41,795 bases of DNA from a virus: positions 1 to 41,795 of IMG/VR virus record IMGVR_UViG_3300043395_002334. One strand, written 5' to 3'. Below the pieces are notes generated by a model. It was not told where the DNA came from. It did not search any database and worked only from the letters and a program-made list of their open reading frames with translations. Numbering within the stretch: position 1 is the first letter of the stretch; each line of letters opens with the position of its first letter. Of the stretch, positions 4,746 to 38,565 are shown piece by piece. The position numbers and the translations under genes are program-made.

Positions 4746-5888
4746 TTATAAAATTTGATTCGCCGATGCACAAAAGTCAAACCCTCCCGCAGAACTCGAA
4801 TACGAGCCAGTTGCGACAGATCCTGTAATAGAGCATGCTTCTACACGGATTCTACCTATAGACCCATCACCTCCGTTTCGAGCAAAGGTATTTCCCGTGC
4901 CGCCTGCACACTCAACTTTGTTTGTCCCGATATTTGCTGTTATTGCCTTGATGAATATACTTCCACCCGCACCACCACCTCCAGATCCACCCGCACCATT
5001 TGTGGCACCGCCACTTTGGGCGCTTCCATTTGCTCCGTTTGATCGAACTATGGTCGCTCCTGATAGATCTACCGACTTTGCAAATATGAGTAAGAATCCA
5101 CCACCAGCCCCTCCTTCTCCCCCGCTGTTCCATCCATCCGAGCTATTGTTCTGATTTCCACCCGCACCACCACCTCCACCAAATACTGCTGTTGTGAGAT
5201 CTGCTGATCCCACACTTCCGCTACCCCCAAGTCCTTTGTCGACTCCAGCCTCTCCACCATCTTCTCCCGCAGAGCCAGCGTTTACGTGTCCTCCTCCTCC
5301 TCCTCCAGCGGCATCAGTTCCATTTCCGACTTTTTGATCTCCTCCTCCACCACCATTACCGTTTGCAGAGTTTGAAGATGCAGGAGCTGCCGTGGTACCA
5401 TCTCCTTGACCTGCTATGGCATTGAGTCCTCCTAGTTCCGAATTCCCGCCAGAGAATCCCAAACCGCTTACATCAATTGTTCCAGTCACCACAAGATCGC
5501 CGTTTATGAGTATTGGAAGTATGCCGCCTGTGTTCTGGTCGTTAGCAGTTCCAGTAAGTGTCCCAGAGATGGTCCCGCCAGTATATTCTTTTACTTCTAT
5601 GACTTGCGCCTGTGACGCTCCAGAGTCTGTATATGTGTAGGCAAGATTATTTGTCAGTGTCAAAGTAGCCCCGCCACCATCGCTTGCAACTTGATTCAGC
5701 TCCCATTGTCCGACACCAGTACCACGGGTTTGATATATGAGTACGATATCGCCAGCCGTAAAGGTGCCAGATTTACTCAGTGTGGTCGATCCAGACGTAC
5801 CACTACAGCTTGACACTGTGCCACCATAGGTTCCACTGGAAGGTACTGCCCCATCTGCGCCCGATCCCCATCCAAGAAACTGTGCCAT
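4746..5888 (-). CDS. Glycine-rich tail-fibre or adhesin protein, 380 aa
   Basis: The N-terminal 160 residues look like beta-rich structural sequence. From about residue 165 the protein is dominated by glycine runs (NGNGGGGGDQK, AAGGGGGGHV, VFGGGGGAGGN, GGEGGAGGG, AGGSGGGGAGG) alternating with hydrophobic strands such as FLLIFAKSVDLSG and SIFIKAIT. Glycine-rich segments of this kind occur in phage receptor-binding adhesins and in bacterial surface proteins where they can form polyglycine-type sandwiches. It lies at the end of the tail module just before the lysis gene, the usual place for receptor-binding proteins. The repeated glycine codons make this locus prone to recombination. Assignment as a receptor-binding protein is inference. 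Confidence 0.7.
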   Translation of the reverse strand: MAQFLGWGSGADGAVPSSGTYGGTVSSCSGTSGSTTLSKSGTFTAGDIVLIYQTRGTGVGQWELNQVASDGGGATLTLTNNLAYTYTDSGASQAQVIEVKEYTGGTISGTLTGTANDQNTGGILPILINGDLVVTGTIDVSGLGFSGGNSELGGLNAIAGQGDGTTAAPASSNSANGNGGGGGDQKVGNGTDAAGGGGGGHVNAGSAGEDGGEAGVDKGLGGSGSVGSADLTTAVFGGGGGAGGNQNNSSDGWNSGGEGGAGGGFLLIFAKSVDLSGATIVRSNGANGSAQSGGATNGAGGSGGGGAGGSIFIKAITANIGTNKVECAGGTGNTFARNGGDGSIGRIRVEACSITGSVATGSYSSSAGGFDFCASANQIL

Positions 5889-14617: not shown

Positions 14618-15868
14618 TTATTCCTCCCAACTGGTATTCAATTTAGTATACCAATCTGTAGCGTTGTTTGTACTATATTGCGTATTATTTTTTGTTTTCC
14701 AAGTGGAGTTCAAAATGGTACTAAATACGGTATTCAATTTAGTATACCACACCCCTTGCTTTGTAATTCTAGCCGTACCCGTAATGGTCCGCTGGGCTGT
14801 TGCAGTAATGCGAGATGTCCCCTGTATTGTCCTTGTCGTGATAAGTGTGATGCGAGCCTTACCGTCGATAGTCTGAGTAACACTGACTGTTATTCTCGCC
14901 TTTCCAGTTATTGTTTGCGATGTTATTAAAGCAATTCTAGCCAGTCCTTGAATGGTTTGTGCTACAACCTGAGTTATGCGAGCAACACCCGTTATTGTTT
15001 GACTTGCACTCTTTTCGATTCTTGACTTACCCGTTATTGTCTGTAGTACCGACGTAGTCACCCGTGCAAGTCCTTGGATTGTCTGAGCAACTGTCTGTGT
15101 GATGCGGGCCTTACCAGTGATGGTTTGCAGCACAGTTGTGGTGATACGAGCCGTACCTGAGATGGTCTGAGTAACAGATTTCTCAATACGTGAGACACCC
15201 GCAATGGTTCGGGCTGTGCTTACAGTAATTCTGGCCAAACCCTGAATTGTTTGTGATACAGACTTTTCAATTCTCGCTTTTCCATCGACTGTCCGAGTTG
15301 CAGTCGCTGTGATACGCGCAAGTCCCTGGATGGTTCTGGTGGTTGTTGCAGTAATACGAGCAACGCCAGCAATCGTCTGTGACACAATTTGGGTTATGCG
15401 GGCCTTTCCGTCGATAGTGCTTGCGACAGTTTGTGTGATGCGAGAGAGCCCTTGGATGGTCCTACTCGTTGTGGCTGTAATCCTCGCCTTTCCGTCGATA
15501 GTCTGGAGCGTTGTAACAATGATTGTGGCCACACCGTTAATAGTCTGTGTTGCGGCCTTTAGAATATCACCTTTACCCGTAATTGTCTGGGTTGTTGTAT
15601 TGAGAATATCTGCTTTCCCAGTTATTGTCTGGGTTGTTGTGGCAGTAACTCTTGAAGTCCCCTGAATAGTTCTGGTAGTGCTGACTGTTATCCTAGAGAG
15701 TCCTTGAATGGTTTGTGCAACCGTTTGTGTAATACGGGCCGTACCCGTAATAGTCCGAGTTGCAGTCGCTGTGATGCGGGCCAAACCAGTGATAACCTGC
15801 TGTACCAGAAAATGCTTCGTGAGGCGAAGCAGCGGTTTGAATGGTTGCGATCGTCCAAGTCGTGCCAT
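14618..15868 (-). CDS. Fibrous protein of twenty-four 14-residue tandem repeats
   Basis: This 416-aa protein has a basic 27-residue head (MARLGRSQPFKPLLRLTKHF), then 24 full repeats of 14 residues with consensus G[LKTV]ARITxTxxQTIxG-type phase, and a 53-residue tail in which WYTKLNT occurs twice around STWKTKNNTQYS. Every repeat is alternately hydrophobic and threonine-rich, so it should build a regular beta fibre or solenoid. It is probably a virion fibre because it lies between accessory structural genes and the connector gene. No catalytic motif is present. I know of repeats of this general look in uncultured bacterial genomes but cannot name a family. The DNA repeats are diverged, so the copy number is old, though slippage could still change it. 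Confidence 0.75.
   Translation of the reverse strand: MARLGRSQPFKPLLRLTKHFLVQQVITGLARITATATRTITGTARITQTVAQTIQGLSRITVSTTRTIQGTSRVTATTTQTITGKADILNTTTQTITGKGDILKAATQTINGVATIIVTTLQTIDGKARITATTSRTIQGLSRITQTVASTIDGKARITQIVSQTIAGVARITATTTRTIQGLARITATATRTVDGKARIEKSVSQTIQGLARITVSTARTIAGVSRIEKSVTQTISGTARITTTVLQTITGKARITQTVAQTIQGLARVTTSVLQTITGKSRIEKSASQTITGVARITQVVAQTIQGLARIALITSQTITGKARITVSVTQTIDGKARITLITTRTIQGTSRITATAQRTITGTARITKQGVWYTKLNTVFSTILNSTWKTKNNTQYSTNNATDWYTKLNTSWEE
14780..15787 (-). repeat. Array of 24 tandem 42-bp units within a coding gene
   Basis: The array spans exactly 24 x 42 bp = 1008 bp and encodes the repeats of the fibre gene in phase. Units differ mostly at the residue pairs after the R-I-T core; the phrases CARITQTVAQTIQG-like and GKARI-like recur non-adjacently, which suggests duplications of multi-unit blocks. 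The plus strand shows long open frames here only because of the repeat periodicity. Confidence 0.9.
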
Positions 15869-34005: not shown

Positions 34006-34165
34006 ATAATTCGACTGAAACTTCTAGGACCTCACCTACTGGCACATCTCGAACCAGATCGGCGATTATATTCTTCTCATACTCACCTACAAAATATTTT
34101 ACTACATATCCTCCATCGATCCCTGGACCCGTGATATGCATCTTGTCGGCGTGGAACGTGATCAT
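33893..34165 (-). CDS. Small protein overlapping terminase small subunit, 90 aa
   Basis: The first 55 residues are a plausible beta-rich domain (MITFHADKMHITGPGIDGGY, VRDVPVGEVLEVSVELYD); the last 35 are a lysine/serine/glutamate-rich tail (KKESEKEKSENSNYRKKGEP) read in the frame next to the small terminase start. The gene overlaps the methionine aminopeptidase stop by ATGA, so it is coupled to it. No family is recognised. The 113-bp overlap with the terminase gene covers the low-complexity tail only. Confidence 0.65.
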   Translation of the reverse strand: MITFHADKMHITGPGIDGGYVVKYFVGEYEKNIIADLVRDVPVGEVLEVSVELYDPDKKESEKEKSENSNYRKKGEPSRQKQKNSKKKIS

Positions 34166-34923
34166 GATTCTTCTGTAAAATGATCGGTCAATATTGTGTA
34201 ACCATCCTTTTCAACTCTCACCATATGCTCATACATCGCACAATTCTTGCCATCCTGCGTTCTGATAGTCCAACCGTTGTCATCCATAAATCCTACTCTA
34301 TCTTTGCCGTGAGTAGCCATCGGCTCGATACATATGATCTGTCCTTCAACTAGATCTGCATATTGGTTGTGCGGCTCGATTGTATTGTAGATATTTGGTG
34401 CCATGTGCATTTCTTTCCCTATCGTGTGGCCGCCAAAGTTTCTGTTGAGTGGGTAGCCATATCGGACGCTTGCCGAATATATAGCTTGCGTTATCTCCAT
34501 TGTAGAAACGCCCGCCTTCACTTGCTCGATTCCTGCATACAATATCTTTTTGGTATACCGCATGAGCCTCTCGTCTTTGTTGGCTACAGTGCCAACAGCA
34601 ACAGTAAAACCAGCATCACCGCAATTTCCTTCGGAGTCACGAACACCAAGATCAAGATTAACAAGATCACCTTCAACAAGAGGTCGTTCATCGGGGATTC
34701 CATGACATACAACATCATTAACTGATATACACGTACTAGCGGGGAAGGCTTCTTTTGCCCACGCAGGCTTGTACCCTTTATTATATGATGTTCCTCCCAG
34801 TTTAACGACCAGAGAAGCCGCCATCTCGTCTATTTCCTTTGCGGTGACCCCTGGATTTGCCATAGCCGCCATTTCTTTCAGTACTTGCGAAACTATCTGG
34901 TACGATTTCAAATGTTTTTTCAT
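34162..34923 (-). CDS. map: Methionine aminopeptidase, type I
   Basis: Type I methionine aminopeptidase removes the N-terminal methionine from new proteins. The start is set at 34923 (MKKHLKSYQIVSQVLKEMAA), giving 253 aa, the usual size; a longer frame to 35046 adds a non-homologous piece overlapping the preceding gene. All five metal ligands and the catalytic histidine are present: H74 (VCHGIP), D91 (NLDLG), D103 (GDAGFT), H166 (GGHTIG), E200 (CIEPMATHG) and E232 (YEHMVRV). It should be active. Bacterial hosts have an essential copy, so a phage copy is notable. It overlaps the zinc-ribbon gene by 122 bp and the next gene by 4 bp. Confidence 0.92.
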   Translation of the reverse strand: MKKHLKSYQIVSQVLKEMAAMANPGVTAKEIDEMAASLVVKLGGTSYNKGYKPAWAKEAFPASTCISVNDVVCHGIPDERPLVEGDLVNLDLGVRDSEGNCGDAGFTVAVGTVANKDERLMRYTKKILYAGIEQVKAGVSTMEITQAIYSASVRYGYPLNRNFGGHTIGKEMHMAPNIYNTIEPHNQYADLVEGQIICIEPMATHGKDRVGFMDDNGWTIRTQDGKNCAMYEHMVRVEKDGYTILTDHFTEES

Positions 34924-35083
34924 TGTTTTGTTGGTTGTAACGCATCTTGCGTTTAATTCTACACTCTCTGCATCGGATAGGAGCATCCCATCCATGTTCT
35001 TTGAAGAATTGCTGGTCCTTGTGTGGAAATTCAAAGTCGTTTCCACAATCCTTACACGTAATTTGTATCGCTGCTATTTCCAT
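34802..35083 (-). CDS. Zinc-ribbon protein with basic glycine/arginine tail, 93 aa
   Basis: The pattern CKDCGNDFEFPHKDQQFFKE with the second pair CRECRIKRK (about residues 38-46) matches the probable zinc-ribbon family with consensus C.DCG..F.F...EQ.FF.E.G. Proteins of this family occur next to nucleic-acid genes. The C-terminus (NGGYGKSRGHRKGNRRDGGF) is basic and disordered and overlaps the start of the methionine aminopeptidase by 122 bp in another frame. It starts 2 bp after the nuclease gene stop. An RNA-binding role is likely but not proven. Confidence 0.75.
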   Translation of the reverse strand: MEIAAIQITCKDCGNDFEFPHKDQQFFKEHGWDAPIRCRECRIKRKMRYNQQNNEKTFEIVPDSFASTERNGGYGKSRGHRKGNRRDGGFSGR

Positions 35084-37028: not shown

Positions 37029-37910
37029 CTATGGAAGGGGATCGAAACTATGTGAGTACGGACCAGGCATGCATCCGTTCACATAACTGACTTGGAACCA
37101 GTAATGGGTTCCGTTTTTGAGACCGCCTATTTCCTCAGTACCGTCATTTTCGGTATTAAGTAATGCGTATCTCCACTCACCATCTACCTCACTATATCGT
37201 ATGTGGGCTTTGCCATATGATGGGTTTGTCCCCCATCGAATGGTTAGTTTTCCGTCATTTGATACAGGATTTTCTACCCAGATATCATTTACCTTCACAG
37301 GTGTCAGATCTGGACAGGATGGGGTTGAGTTGCCACTAGATTGTTCTGGCTCCGAAGGCGTGCTCTGTGGCACCTCCGTTGGAGTAGGAGTAATTCTAGG
37401 AGTCTCAGTTGGTGTCGGTGTTACCTCTTGCGTAGGTGTTGGAGTGACAGTTGGCTCCTGTGTAGGAGTTGGTGTAACTTCAACAGTCGGGACTGGTGTC
37501 ACAGTCGGTGCAATTGTAGGTGTAGCCGTTGGAGCACTCGTGGGAGTGACCGTAGGCGTTGGACACACAGCTTTAACTTTTACTTGAGCGTTGTTTATAG
37601 TTGTCCCAGGATTTGGGTTCAAGTCATTCACGGGACCGTTTGCATACACATGGAATCCTGAGAAACCATCATTTGCTACATCGAGTGCAACTTCTGTGAT
37701 TTGATATCCAGCTTGTGCAGTTACATCGATTCGCTCATCAGAAAGCTCGTAATTGATTACGACTTTGCTGTCTGCATAATCAATTGATTTTGTGTACGTG
37801 AAGACTTCCTCACAATTTGGTTGATTTGTCGCAAATACTCGTGCTACAAACATGAGTAACGCAGCCGCTACGACTGCTCCTACGACAATTTTTGCTGTTT
37901 TGTTTTTCAT
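37029..37910 (-). CDS. Secreted stalk protein with threonine-proline repeats and FN3-like domain
   Basis: The 293-aa protein has a signal peptide or anchor (residues about 8-27, IVVGAVVAAALLMFVARVFA) with likely cleavage after FA. Residues 30-110 are a small beta domain (YADSKVVINYELSDERIDVT). Residues 113-185 are a TP-rich stalk (TPTVTPTSAPTATPTIAPTV). Residues 200-293 look like an FN3-type domain (GKLTIRWGTNPSYGKAHIRY; NGTHYWFQVSYVNG). This is a cell-surface design rather than a virion one: it would display the terminal domain outside the host cell. Superinfection exclusion or surface modification are possible. A ribosome binding site (AAAGGGGGTGA) precedes the ATG; a 24-bp palindrome sits in the leader. 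Confidence 0.8.
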   Translation of the reverse strand: MKNKTAKIVVGAVVAAALLMFVARVFATNQPNCEEVFTYTKSIDYADSKVVINYELSDERIDVTAQAGYQITEVALDVANDGFSGFHVYANGPVNDLNPNPGTTINNAQVKVKAVCPTPTVTPTSAPTATPTIAPTVTPVPTVEVTPTPTQEPTVTPTPTQEVTPTPTETPRITPTPTEVPQSTPSEPEQSSGNSTPSCPDLTPVKVNDIWVENPVSNDGKLTIRWGTNPSYGKAHIRYSEVDGEWRYALLNTENDGTEEIGGLKNGTHYWFQVSYVNGCMPGPYSHSFDPLP

Positions 37911-37936
37911 ATTTTCACCCCCTTTGGTTCAATTCT

Positions 37937-37960
37937 AATTATGGCATATTCGCCATAATT
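37937..37960. promoter_or_regulatory. 24-bp palindrome, operator-like, before surface protein gene
   Basis: AATTATGGC-gaatat-GCCATAATT (minus strand) is a perfect 9-bp inverted repeat with a 6-bp centre, ending 9 nt upstream of the ribosome binding site region of the stalk protein gene. A regulator dimer or an mRNA hairpin could act here. Confidence 0.6.
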
Positions 37961-37970
37961 AAAAACTGGT

Positions 37971-38029
37971 ATGTGGAGGGGGAGAAAGGAGGCATAAATT
38001 TCTTTATGACAATCCCCTCCACATGTCAA
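37971..38029 (-). promoter_or_regulatory. Inverted repeat with embedded -35 box
   Basis: ATGTGGAGGGG (38024-38014 on the minus strand) pairs with 37981-37971. A nested CATAAA-GAAA-TTTATG hairpin lies inside. TTGACA (38029-38024) partly overlaps the first arm; at 17 nt spacing the -10 would be TAAAGA (38006-38001), a weak match. The loop is rich in CCUCC-like words that could pair with the ribosome binding site of the stalk gene. Confidence 0.4.
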
Positions 38030-38036
38030 TTCTCAA

Positions 38037-38060
38037 CATCATAATGCTCACATTATGATG
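38037..38060. other. Perfect 10-bp hairpin
   Basis: CATCATAATG and CATTATGATG flank a 4-nt loop (38047-38050). No U-run follows on either strand. It may be a processing site between the RNA elements upstream and the stalk gene. Confidence 0.6.
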
Positions 38061-38079
38061 AGGCTGTCCAAAAGCTCTC

Positions 38080-38187
38080 ATCTGTGGGGCCTATACTCCC
38101 AAGCGTTGCGTTCACTTAGGTTTGAGGGACCCCATGAGTTTTCGCAACTCTCTACGAAGTCCCCACCACGCAAGCAGCCCCACAGAT
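38080..38187 (-). ncRNA. 108-nt rod-like structured RNA
   Basis: On the minus strand an 11-bp closing stem (38187-38177 with 38090-38080, GC-rich) encloses a nested series: TTGCGT/ACGCAA (38173-38168, 38111-38106), GGGGAC/GTCCCT (38164-38159, 38130-38125) and GAGTT/AACTC (38150-38146, 38140-38136) with a GCGAA loop. Large internal loops separate them. Chance occurrence of such nesting is low. No known RNA family is recognised. It follows the tRNA-like element after 15 nt, so both could be made from one transcript. Confidence 0.6.
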
Positions 38188-38202
38188 CATAGCTCCTTGT
38201 AT

Positions 38203-38350
38203 GGTGGTAGGCAGGATTCGAACCTACGTCTTGCATTGTTCCTTTACTTTCAAGCTGATAAGACCCTACTTGCAAAGGGGTTGTTCCCAGCCCTGTTTAT
38301 CAAACAGTATTCCAAACAACTCTCATCCTAACCACTAGACGACTACCACC
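38203..38350 (-). tRNA. tRNA-like element with ~74-nt extra insertion in the anticodon region
   Basis: Acceptor 5' arm GTGGTAG (38349-38343) pairs exactly with CTACCAC (38210-38204). An extra G (38350) can pair with C (38203), as G-1:C73 in bacterial tRNA-His. The D arm (GTCT, AGTGGTTA loop, GGAT; 38340-38325) and the T arm (GTAGG, TTCGAAT loop, CCTGC; 38227-38211) are canonical. The 96 nt between D and T arms replace the normal 22 nt and contain a GTTGTT/AACAAC stem around a CTGTTT/AAACAG hairpin. I cannot find a regular anticodon stem-loop. So it is an intron-bearing tRNA, a degenerate tRNA or a tRNA mimic. CCA is not encoded. Confidence 0.6.
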
Positions 38351-38565
38351 GTACCAAGAGCTAATCAAGATTTATTTCTCCATCTTTACTAATTATCCAC
38401 TTTGGCATAACCCAAAGGTCTATAATTTGTTTTTTGTACTTTGTCGGTAAGTCGCTATTTATAATCGCAATCAAAAACTCTTTCGTATGCTTATCAATTT
38501 TTATTCTTTCAAGTTGTTTTATCATAACTGCCTATTCTACTTATAACCGTACCAAGAGCTAATCA
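38348..38565. repeat. 20-bp direct repeat flanking a mini gene
   Basis: ACCGTACCAAGAGCTAATCA occurs at 38348-38367 and 38546-38565. Each copy covers the stop codon region of a small gene on the minus strand. The 13-bp CATAACTGCCTAT (38523, 38764) and the 16-bp TAATGATTTAATCTTC (38779-38794, 39099-39114) are further duplicated intergenic words in the same cluster. Confidence 0.85.
38361..38525 (-). CDS. Basic miniprotein, 54 aa
   Basis: ATG at 38525, TAG at 38363-38361. The protein is helical and lysine-rich (MIKQLERIKIDKHTKEFLIA; LPTKYKKQIIDLWVMPKWII). No cysteines. Family unknown. The ATG context GGCAGTTATGA is duplicated before the next gene upstream, and the stop region lies in a 20-bp repeat. 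It is the last gene of the early operon before the tRNA-like element. Confidence 0.7.
   Translation of the reverse strand: MIKQLERIKIDKHTKEFLIAIINSDLPTKYKKQIIDLWVMPKWIISKDGEINLD

What the first reader, a model, noticed from the sequence alone, without database searches (positions are those of the whole stretch)
38203..38350. tRNA-like element whose anticodon arm is replaced by a ~96-nt structured insert
Seen: complete acceptor, D and T arms with a canonical TTCGAAT loop and a possible G-1:C73 pair as in tRNA-His, but no normal anticodon arm; the middle has its own hairpins. Known: group I introns in tRNA are usually over 200 nt and archaeal-type introns are flanked by a bulge-helix-bulge. Inference: this could be a novel small intron, a tRNA mimic acting on host tRNA enzymes or tRNA-cleaving defence, or a decaying tRNA.
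Basis: partly seen in the sequence, partly recalled or inferred. Interest (0 to 1): 0.8.

Follow-up and report, generated by a model that had tools for sequence, protein, structure and literature searches.

The report
tRNA-like phage RNA lacking anticodon arm
A phage that probably infects ultra-small CPR bacteria carries one tRNA-shaped RNA with its acceptor, D and T arms intact but 97 bases with no readable anticodon where the anticodon arm should be, so it cannot be an ordinary tRNA and may be a tRNA-like scaffold RNA or a damaged relic.

Summary
Rfam's tRNA model matches above its cut-off (32.4 vs 29 bits). The acceptor (8 pairs including G-1:C73), D and T arms and the invariant elbow bases are present; 97 nt lie between the D and T arms, where about 23 are normal. 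ARAGORN finds no ordinary tRNA. A small intron is disfavoured: no excision restores a 5-bp anticodon stem with U33 and R37, and the best score over all excisions is no better than for shuffled inserts. The insert as a whole folds no better than chance (z -0.8). Leader and trailer pair and lengthen the acceptor stem (11 of 13). A strongly folded 112-nt RNA (z -4.6) follows directly. The host is probably Patescibacteria. No homologue was found in related phages, IMG/VR pattern scans, phage or plasmid records, or 374 CPR genomes, so selection cannot be tested. Three phage tRNAs with enlarged anticodon regions found in other loci keep a 5-bp anticodon stem; this one does not. Best reading: a non-decoding tRNA-like scaffold RNA handled by host tRNA enzymes (0.42). 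Main rival: a chimeric or decaying tRNA (0.32).

The parts
38203..38350 (-). tRNA-like element as a whole (G-1 at 38350, C73 at 38203)
   Evidence: Rfam RF00005, 32.4 bits over cut-off 29
38343..38350 (-). acceptor 5' strand GGTGGTAG (G-1 to G7)
   Evidence: 8 of 8 Watson-Crick pairs with 38203-38210; pair probabilities 0.98-1.0
38325..38340 (-). D arm GTCT-AGTGGTTA-GGAT, identical except for its last base to CPR tRNA-Glu (GTCT-AGTGGTTA-GGAC)
   Evidence: sequence; pair probabilities 0.89-0.94; CPR tRNA-Glu in L199
38228..38324 (-). 97-nt segment in place of the anticodon arm and variable loop; no GTG anticodon and no canonical 5-bp anticodon stem
38280..38320 (-). arm X: 7-bp stem, 6x6 internal loop, 6-bp stem; a 7-nt loop UUGAUAA resembling a tRNA-Ile(GAU) anticodon loop can form at its tip
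   Evidence: fold; z -3.5 taken alone, post hoc
38241..38278 (-). arm Y: 7-bp stem CCUUUGC/GUAAAGG; its loop holds UUAUCA, complementary to UGAUAA of arm X
   Evidence: fold; the loop-loop complementarity is read from the sequence and untested
38211..38227 (-). T arm GTAGG-TTCGAAT-CCTGC
   Evidence: 5 of 5 pairs (one G-U); probabilities 0.97-0.98
38203..38210 (-). acceptor 3' strand CTACCACC (C73 at 38203); no CCA encoded in register
   Evidence: sequence
38351..38363 (-). 5' leader TAGCTCTTGGTAC, pairs with the trailer and lengthens the acceptor stem
   Evidence: 11 of 13 pairs; 6 of 425 real tRNAs in held loci reach this with generous offsets; flank shuffles p 0.0016; inverted repeat I2
38190..38202 (-). 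3' trailer ATACAAGGAGCTA, partner of the leader
38348..38367 (-). 20-nt repeat TGATTAGCTCTTGGTACGGT overlapping the 5' end of the element; second identical copy at 38546-38565
   Evidence: D1
38076..38187 (-). adjacent structured RNA: 12-bp closing stem, three-way junction; hairpin loop AACGCAA complementary to UUGCGU in the junction
   Evidence: fold -52.7 kcal/mol, z -4.57, 0 of 200 shuffles as good; no Rfam family; no homologue in related phages

Best explanation
A non-decoding tRNA-like RNA of the phage. Shown by sequence and prediction: an intact acceptor/T/D half of a tRNA, an RNA segment without any canonical anticodon arm in the place of that arm, and flanks that extend the acceptor stem. 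Inferred: it is transcribed with the neighbouring minus-strand genes. Its elbow and acceptor-T half are recognised by host tRNA-handling factors (RNase P, RNase Z, possibly CCA-adding enzyme, EF-Tu or, through G-1:C73, HisRS). The tRNA body therefore acts as a nuclease-resistant scaffold and processing mark that presents the inserted arms and separates the adjacent 112-nt RNA. It works like the engineered 'tRNA scaffold', in which the anticodon arm is replaced by a payload RNA.
For: Rfam tRNA match over cut-off. Acceptor, D and T stems fully paired and the invariant elbow bases kept, although the decoding arm is gone. No ordinary tRNA found and no excision restores one. Leader-trailer pairing is unusual for tRNAs, and the fold with flanks is much better than chance (z -3.56). 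A strongly structured RNA starts 15 nt downstream on the same strand. Replacing the anticodon stem-loop by other RNA while keeping the acceptor stem and the T and D arms gives RNAs recognised by E. coli factors (PMC3753655).
Against: No homologue anywhere, so no covariation and no sign of selection. The insert as a whole is not more structured than chance (z -0.78). The paired leader and trailer could hinder RNase P and RNase Z. No CCA is encoded in register. Transcription is not shown.
Confidence: 0.42

Rival explanations
1. A chimeric or decaying phage tRNA: the anticodon arm of an acquired tRNA was lost or replaced by recombination recently, and the rest has not yet drifted. No function.
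For: No relatives carry it; accessory tRNAs come and go in phages (general knowledge); the insert as a whole folds no better than chance; the D arm looks like CPR tRNA-Glu while the acceptor end with G-1:C73 looks like tRNA-His, a mixed origin; a 20-nt repeat at its 5' end shows local rearrangement.
Against: All stems and the invariant elbow bases are intact. A simple insertion into an intact tRNA is disfavoured, because no excision restores a canonical anticodon arm. The flanks pair and extend the stem.
Confidence: 0.32
2. A real tRNA with a small intron of unknown type, as reported for Lak megaphages, spliced to give a decoding tRNA.
For: Phage tRNAs with enigmatic introns exist (PMC6784885). 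In the loci held here, L153 451-559 is a tRNA-His(GTG) with a 32-nt insert whose removal gives a canonical anticodon arm. ARAGORN with introns calls tRNA-Phe(AAA) with a 67-nt intron in the window.
Against: No excision gives a 5-bp anticodon stem with U33 and R37 at normal spacing (0 solutions); the best excision score, 112.8, lies inside the range for shuffled inserts, 106.8-118.6. Anticodon AAA with a 5-nt linker is not a plausible bacterial tRNA. No group I or II match. No GTG for the His-like acceptor.
Confidence: 0.15
3. A decoy for host tRNA-cleaving defence nucleases or tRNA enzymes; arm X offers a UUGAUAA loop like that of tRNA-Ile(GAU).
For: A 7-nt loop with U33, GAU, A37 and A38 can form at the tip of arm X (sequence; fold); a tRNA-like domain acting as competitive inhibitor of an anticodon nuclease has been proposed for YrlA (PMC7790460).
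Against: The loop is far from the elbow and the match is post hoc; no nuclease is known here.
Confidence: 0.07
4. A relative of bacterial Y RNAs (YrlA): basal stem from the 5' and 3' ends plus a tRNA-like domain, tethering an Ro60/Rsr ring protein to an RNase.
For: Same parts list as described for YrlA: end-to-end stem and D, T and acceptor-like arms (PMC8394870).
Against: The Rfam YrlA model scores 11.6 bits against a cut-off of 69; no TROVE/Ro60 protein in the phage.
Confidence: 0.04

Closest known systems
Engineered tRNA scaffold (RNA payload in place of the anticodon stem-loop; PMC3753655)
   Same: acceptor stem, T and D arms kept; anticodon arm replaced by other RNA
   Different: natural here, in a phage; leader and trailer also paired; function and stability untested
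Intron-containing tRNAs of Lak megaphages (PMC6784885)
   Same: phage tRNA enlarged by an enigmatic insert
   Different: there, the tRNA type could be assigned and copies without the insert are known; here no removal restores an anticodon arm, and this phage record is about 42 kb with no other tRNA
YrlA bacterial Y RNA (Rfam RF02553)
   Same: end-to-end basal stem plus D, T and acceptor-like arms without decoding
   Different: model score 11.6 vs 69; no Ro60 in the phage
tmRNA
   Same: tRNA acceptor and T half without a normal anticodon arm
   Different: no Rfam match; D arm canonical here; far shorter, no sign of the tag frame
Phage tRNAs with enlarged anticodon loops in L186 and L126
   Same: normal acceptor, D and T arms with a 75-77 nt structured middle
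   Different: they keep a 5-bp anticodon stem at the normal position; the window element does not

Membership tests
tRNA (RF00005) | tRNA covariance model score over 29 bits | tested here: met
   32.4 bits
tRNA (RF00005) | 5-bp anticodon stem with 7-nt loop, U33 and an anticodon | tested here: not met
   absent as encoded and after any excision
intron-containing tRNA | excision restores a canonical anticodon arm | tested here: not met
   0 solutions with 5 pairs, U33 and R37; ARAGORN scores as for shuffles
intron-containing tRNA | group I/II core | tested here: not met
   no such Rfam match up to E 5
intron-containing tRNA | spliced product in RNA | not testable with these tools
   no transcript data
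tRNA-His | G-1:C73 | tested here: met
   sequence, 38350 and 38203
tRNA-His | GTG anticodon | tested here: not met
   no GTG in the 97-nt middle (sequence)
YrlA Y RNA | RF02553 score over 69 | tested here: not met
   11.6 bits
YrlA Y RNA | Ro60/Rsr partner | tested here: inconclusive
   no TROVE domain in the phage; host not searched
tmRNA | tmRNA model match | tested here: not met
   no listed match

The most novel reading that the evidence does not exclude
Phages of CPR bacteria encode natural tRNA scaffolds: dedicated non-decoding RNAs that use the acceptor-T-D half of a tRNA to stabilise, process or target an inserted functional RNA, here paired with a second compact structured RNA; a new class of phage non-coding RNA.
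Probability: 0.18. Interest if true: 0.75.

Novelty: new variant of a known kind. Interest (0 to 1): 0.42.

Why it matters
If functional, it would show that a phage uses a tRNA body as a natural scaffold or processing signal, a trick otherwise known mainly from engineered RNAs, tmRNA and Y RNAs, and in the poorly known phages of CPR bacteria. It also points to a wider, little-studied set of phage tRNA genes with enlarged anticodon regions that ordinary tRNA finders miss or misname.

Tried and rejected
Small intron: all excisions enumerated, none canonical. Homologues: TerL relatives L001-L012 show no tRNA by Rfam or ARAGORN; IMG/VR patterns for the whole element, its 5' half, its middle and the second RNA found none; the looser D-loop/T-loop pattern found 78 loci, mostly neighbouring tRNAs, and 7/7 acceptor pairing occurs only in the window; GTDB contigs for an intact host version, none; 380 genomes of the phylum by pattern gave none and 374 by covariance model gave only ordinary tRNAs; phage and plasmid BLAST gave only weak generic matches or none. 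YrlA and Ro60: not met. Antisense to phage start sites: CAACCCCTTTG in the insert nearly complements the Shine-Dalgarno of the gene at 37910 (10 of 11), but this is not significant (p 0.08; best over all genes p 0.16). Second RNA as a 5S rRNA mimic: suspected by eye, no Rfam support. Erwinia phage matches to L186 turned out to be other tRNA genes.

Full report
What is there. The element lies on the minus strand, the coding strand of the phage, between a short ORF and the 37910-37029 gene. Rfam's tRNA model matches 38349-38203 with 32.4 bits, above its curated cut-off of 29, and is the only Rfam match in the 41,795-base window. Reading the strand gives acceptor GGTGGTAG, TC, D arm GTCT-AGTGGTTA-GGAT, 97 nt, T arm GTAGG-TTCGAAT-CCTGC and acceptor CTACCACC. 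G-1 pairs with C73 as in tRNA-His. The bases that hold a tRNA elbow together (8, 14, 15, 18, 19, 21, 48, 53-58, 60, 61) all fit the consensus. In a 438-nt context the acceptor, D and T pairs have probabilities of at least 0.98, 0.89 and 0.97.

What is not there. ARAGORN finds no tRNA. With introns allowed it calls tRNA-Phe(AAA) with a 67-nt intron and a poor D stem. All possible excisions were enumerated: none leaves one base at 26, a fully paired 5-bp anticodon stem, U33, a purine at 37 and a 4-5 nt variable loop. The best ARAGORN score over all excisions, 112.8, lies within the maxima of 20 shuffled inserts, 106.8-118.6. A plain insertion into an intact tRNA, and a conventional tRNA intron, are therefore both disfavoured. 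An intron with non-canonical geometry is not excluded.

How structured is it? The insert alone folds at -21.6 kcal/mol, z -0.78, so it is not unusual. Arm X alone is (z -3.5), but it was chosen after seeing the fold. The 148-nt element has z -1.83. With 16 nt of flank on each side z is -3.56, because leader TAGCTCTTGGTAC and trailer ATACAAGGAGCTA pair at 11 of 13 positions and lengthen the acceptor stem. Among 425 distinct tRNAs in the loci held, 6 reach 11 or more even with ten offset choices each, and flank shuffles give p 0.0016. Just after the trailer starts a 112-nt RNA with a 12-bp closing stem and z -4.57, not in Rfam, followed by perfect or near-perfect hairpins.

Where it comes from. 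The window is an IMG/VR virus record. Its large terminase has relatives at 57-62% identity in metagenomic phages and, in GTDB contigs, in a Patescibacteria MAG (59%) and a Gottesmanbacteria MAG (52%); two further hits are distant, 26% (Ignavibacteria) and 25% (Patescibacteria). A CPR host is likely, though this rests on MAG binning. The D arm matches a CPR tRNA-Glu except for its last base (L199). The closest related phages have no tRNA in the stretches held, and covariance models of the element and of the second RNA find no relative in them or, for the element, in 374 CPR genomes. The element is an orphan and its conservation cannot be tested.

Comparable cases. Lak megaphages have tRNAs with enigmatic introns (PMC6784885). 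ARAGORN with introns on the 2.0 Mb of loci held gave 13 intron calls among 515; one of these, L197, is the window itself. L153 451-559 is tRNA-His(GTG) with a 32-nt insert whose removal is canonical. L186 11050-11175 and L126 10206-10334 keep a 5-bp anticodon stem at the normal place but carry about 60 nt of structured loop. The window element goes further: even the stem is gone. The engineered tRNA scaffold (PMC3753655) is built the same way, and such chimeras are recognised by E. coli factors. YrlA (PMC8394870) has the same parts list, but its model is not met and its partner protein is not in the phage.

Mechanism. I commit to a non-decoding tRNA-like scaffold RNA handled by host tRNA enzymes (0.42). 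Shown: tRNA-like acceptor, D and T arms, absence of an anticodon arm, pairing flanks, a neighbouring structured RNA. Inferred: transcription, recognition, stability, any payload function. The strongest rival is a recently chimeric or decaying tRNA (0.32), which would account for the lack of relatives and the unremarkable folding of the insert.

Noticed in passing
window 38076-38187 (-): 112-nt RNA with a 12-bp closing stem, three-way junction and a possible pseudoknot (AACGCAA loop with UUGCGU); z -4.57; no Rfam family and no homologue found.
   Followed up: partly
window 37930-38060 (-): Series of near-perfect hairpins between the structured RNAs and the gene at 37910 (inverted repeats I1, I4 and I6); the related phage L004 has a structured non-coding stretch upstream of terL (4789-5172) without detectable similarity.
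   Followed up: partly
window 38348-38367 and 38546-38565: Identical 20-nt repeats flank a 178-nt stretch holding a short ORF; the first overlaps the first three bases of the tRNA-like element.
   Followed up: partly
L153 451-559, L186 11050-11175 (-), L126 10206-10334: Other phage tRNAs with normal outer arms and an enlarged anticodon loop; L153 is a tRNA-His(GTG) with a 32-nt insert, L186 and L126 keep a 5-bp anticodon stem with about 60 nt inside.
   Followed up: partly
L208 355-425, L209 355-425, L210 353-423 (Erwinia phages Hena2, Prophecy, vEam_PM_6): Unannotated tRNA that ARAGORN cannot name (6-nt anticodon loop), conserved in these phages and enclosed by an 8-bp stem CTTCAGAG/CTCTGAAG.
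   Followed up: no
window 34162-35046 (-): Phage-encoded type I methionine aminopeptidase (TIGR00500, 216 bits, cut-off 171), also in relative L002 (44% identity).
   Followed up: no
window 14618-15868 (-): 416-aa protein made mostly of short repeats of the kind 'T.TRTI.G.ARIT'; no PHROG match and no Pfam match over cut-off.
   Followed up: no
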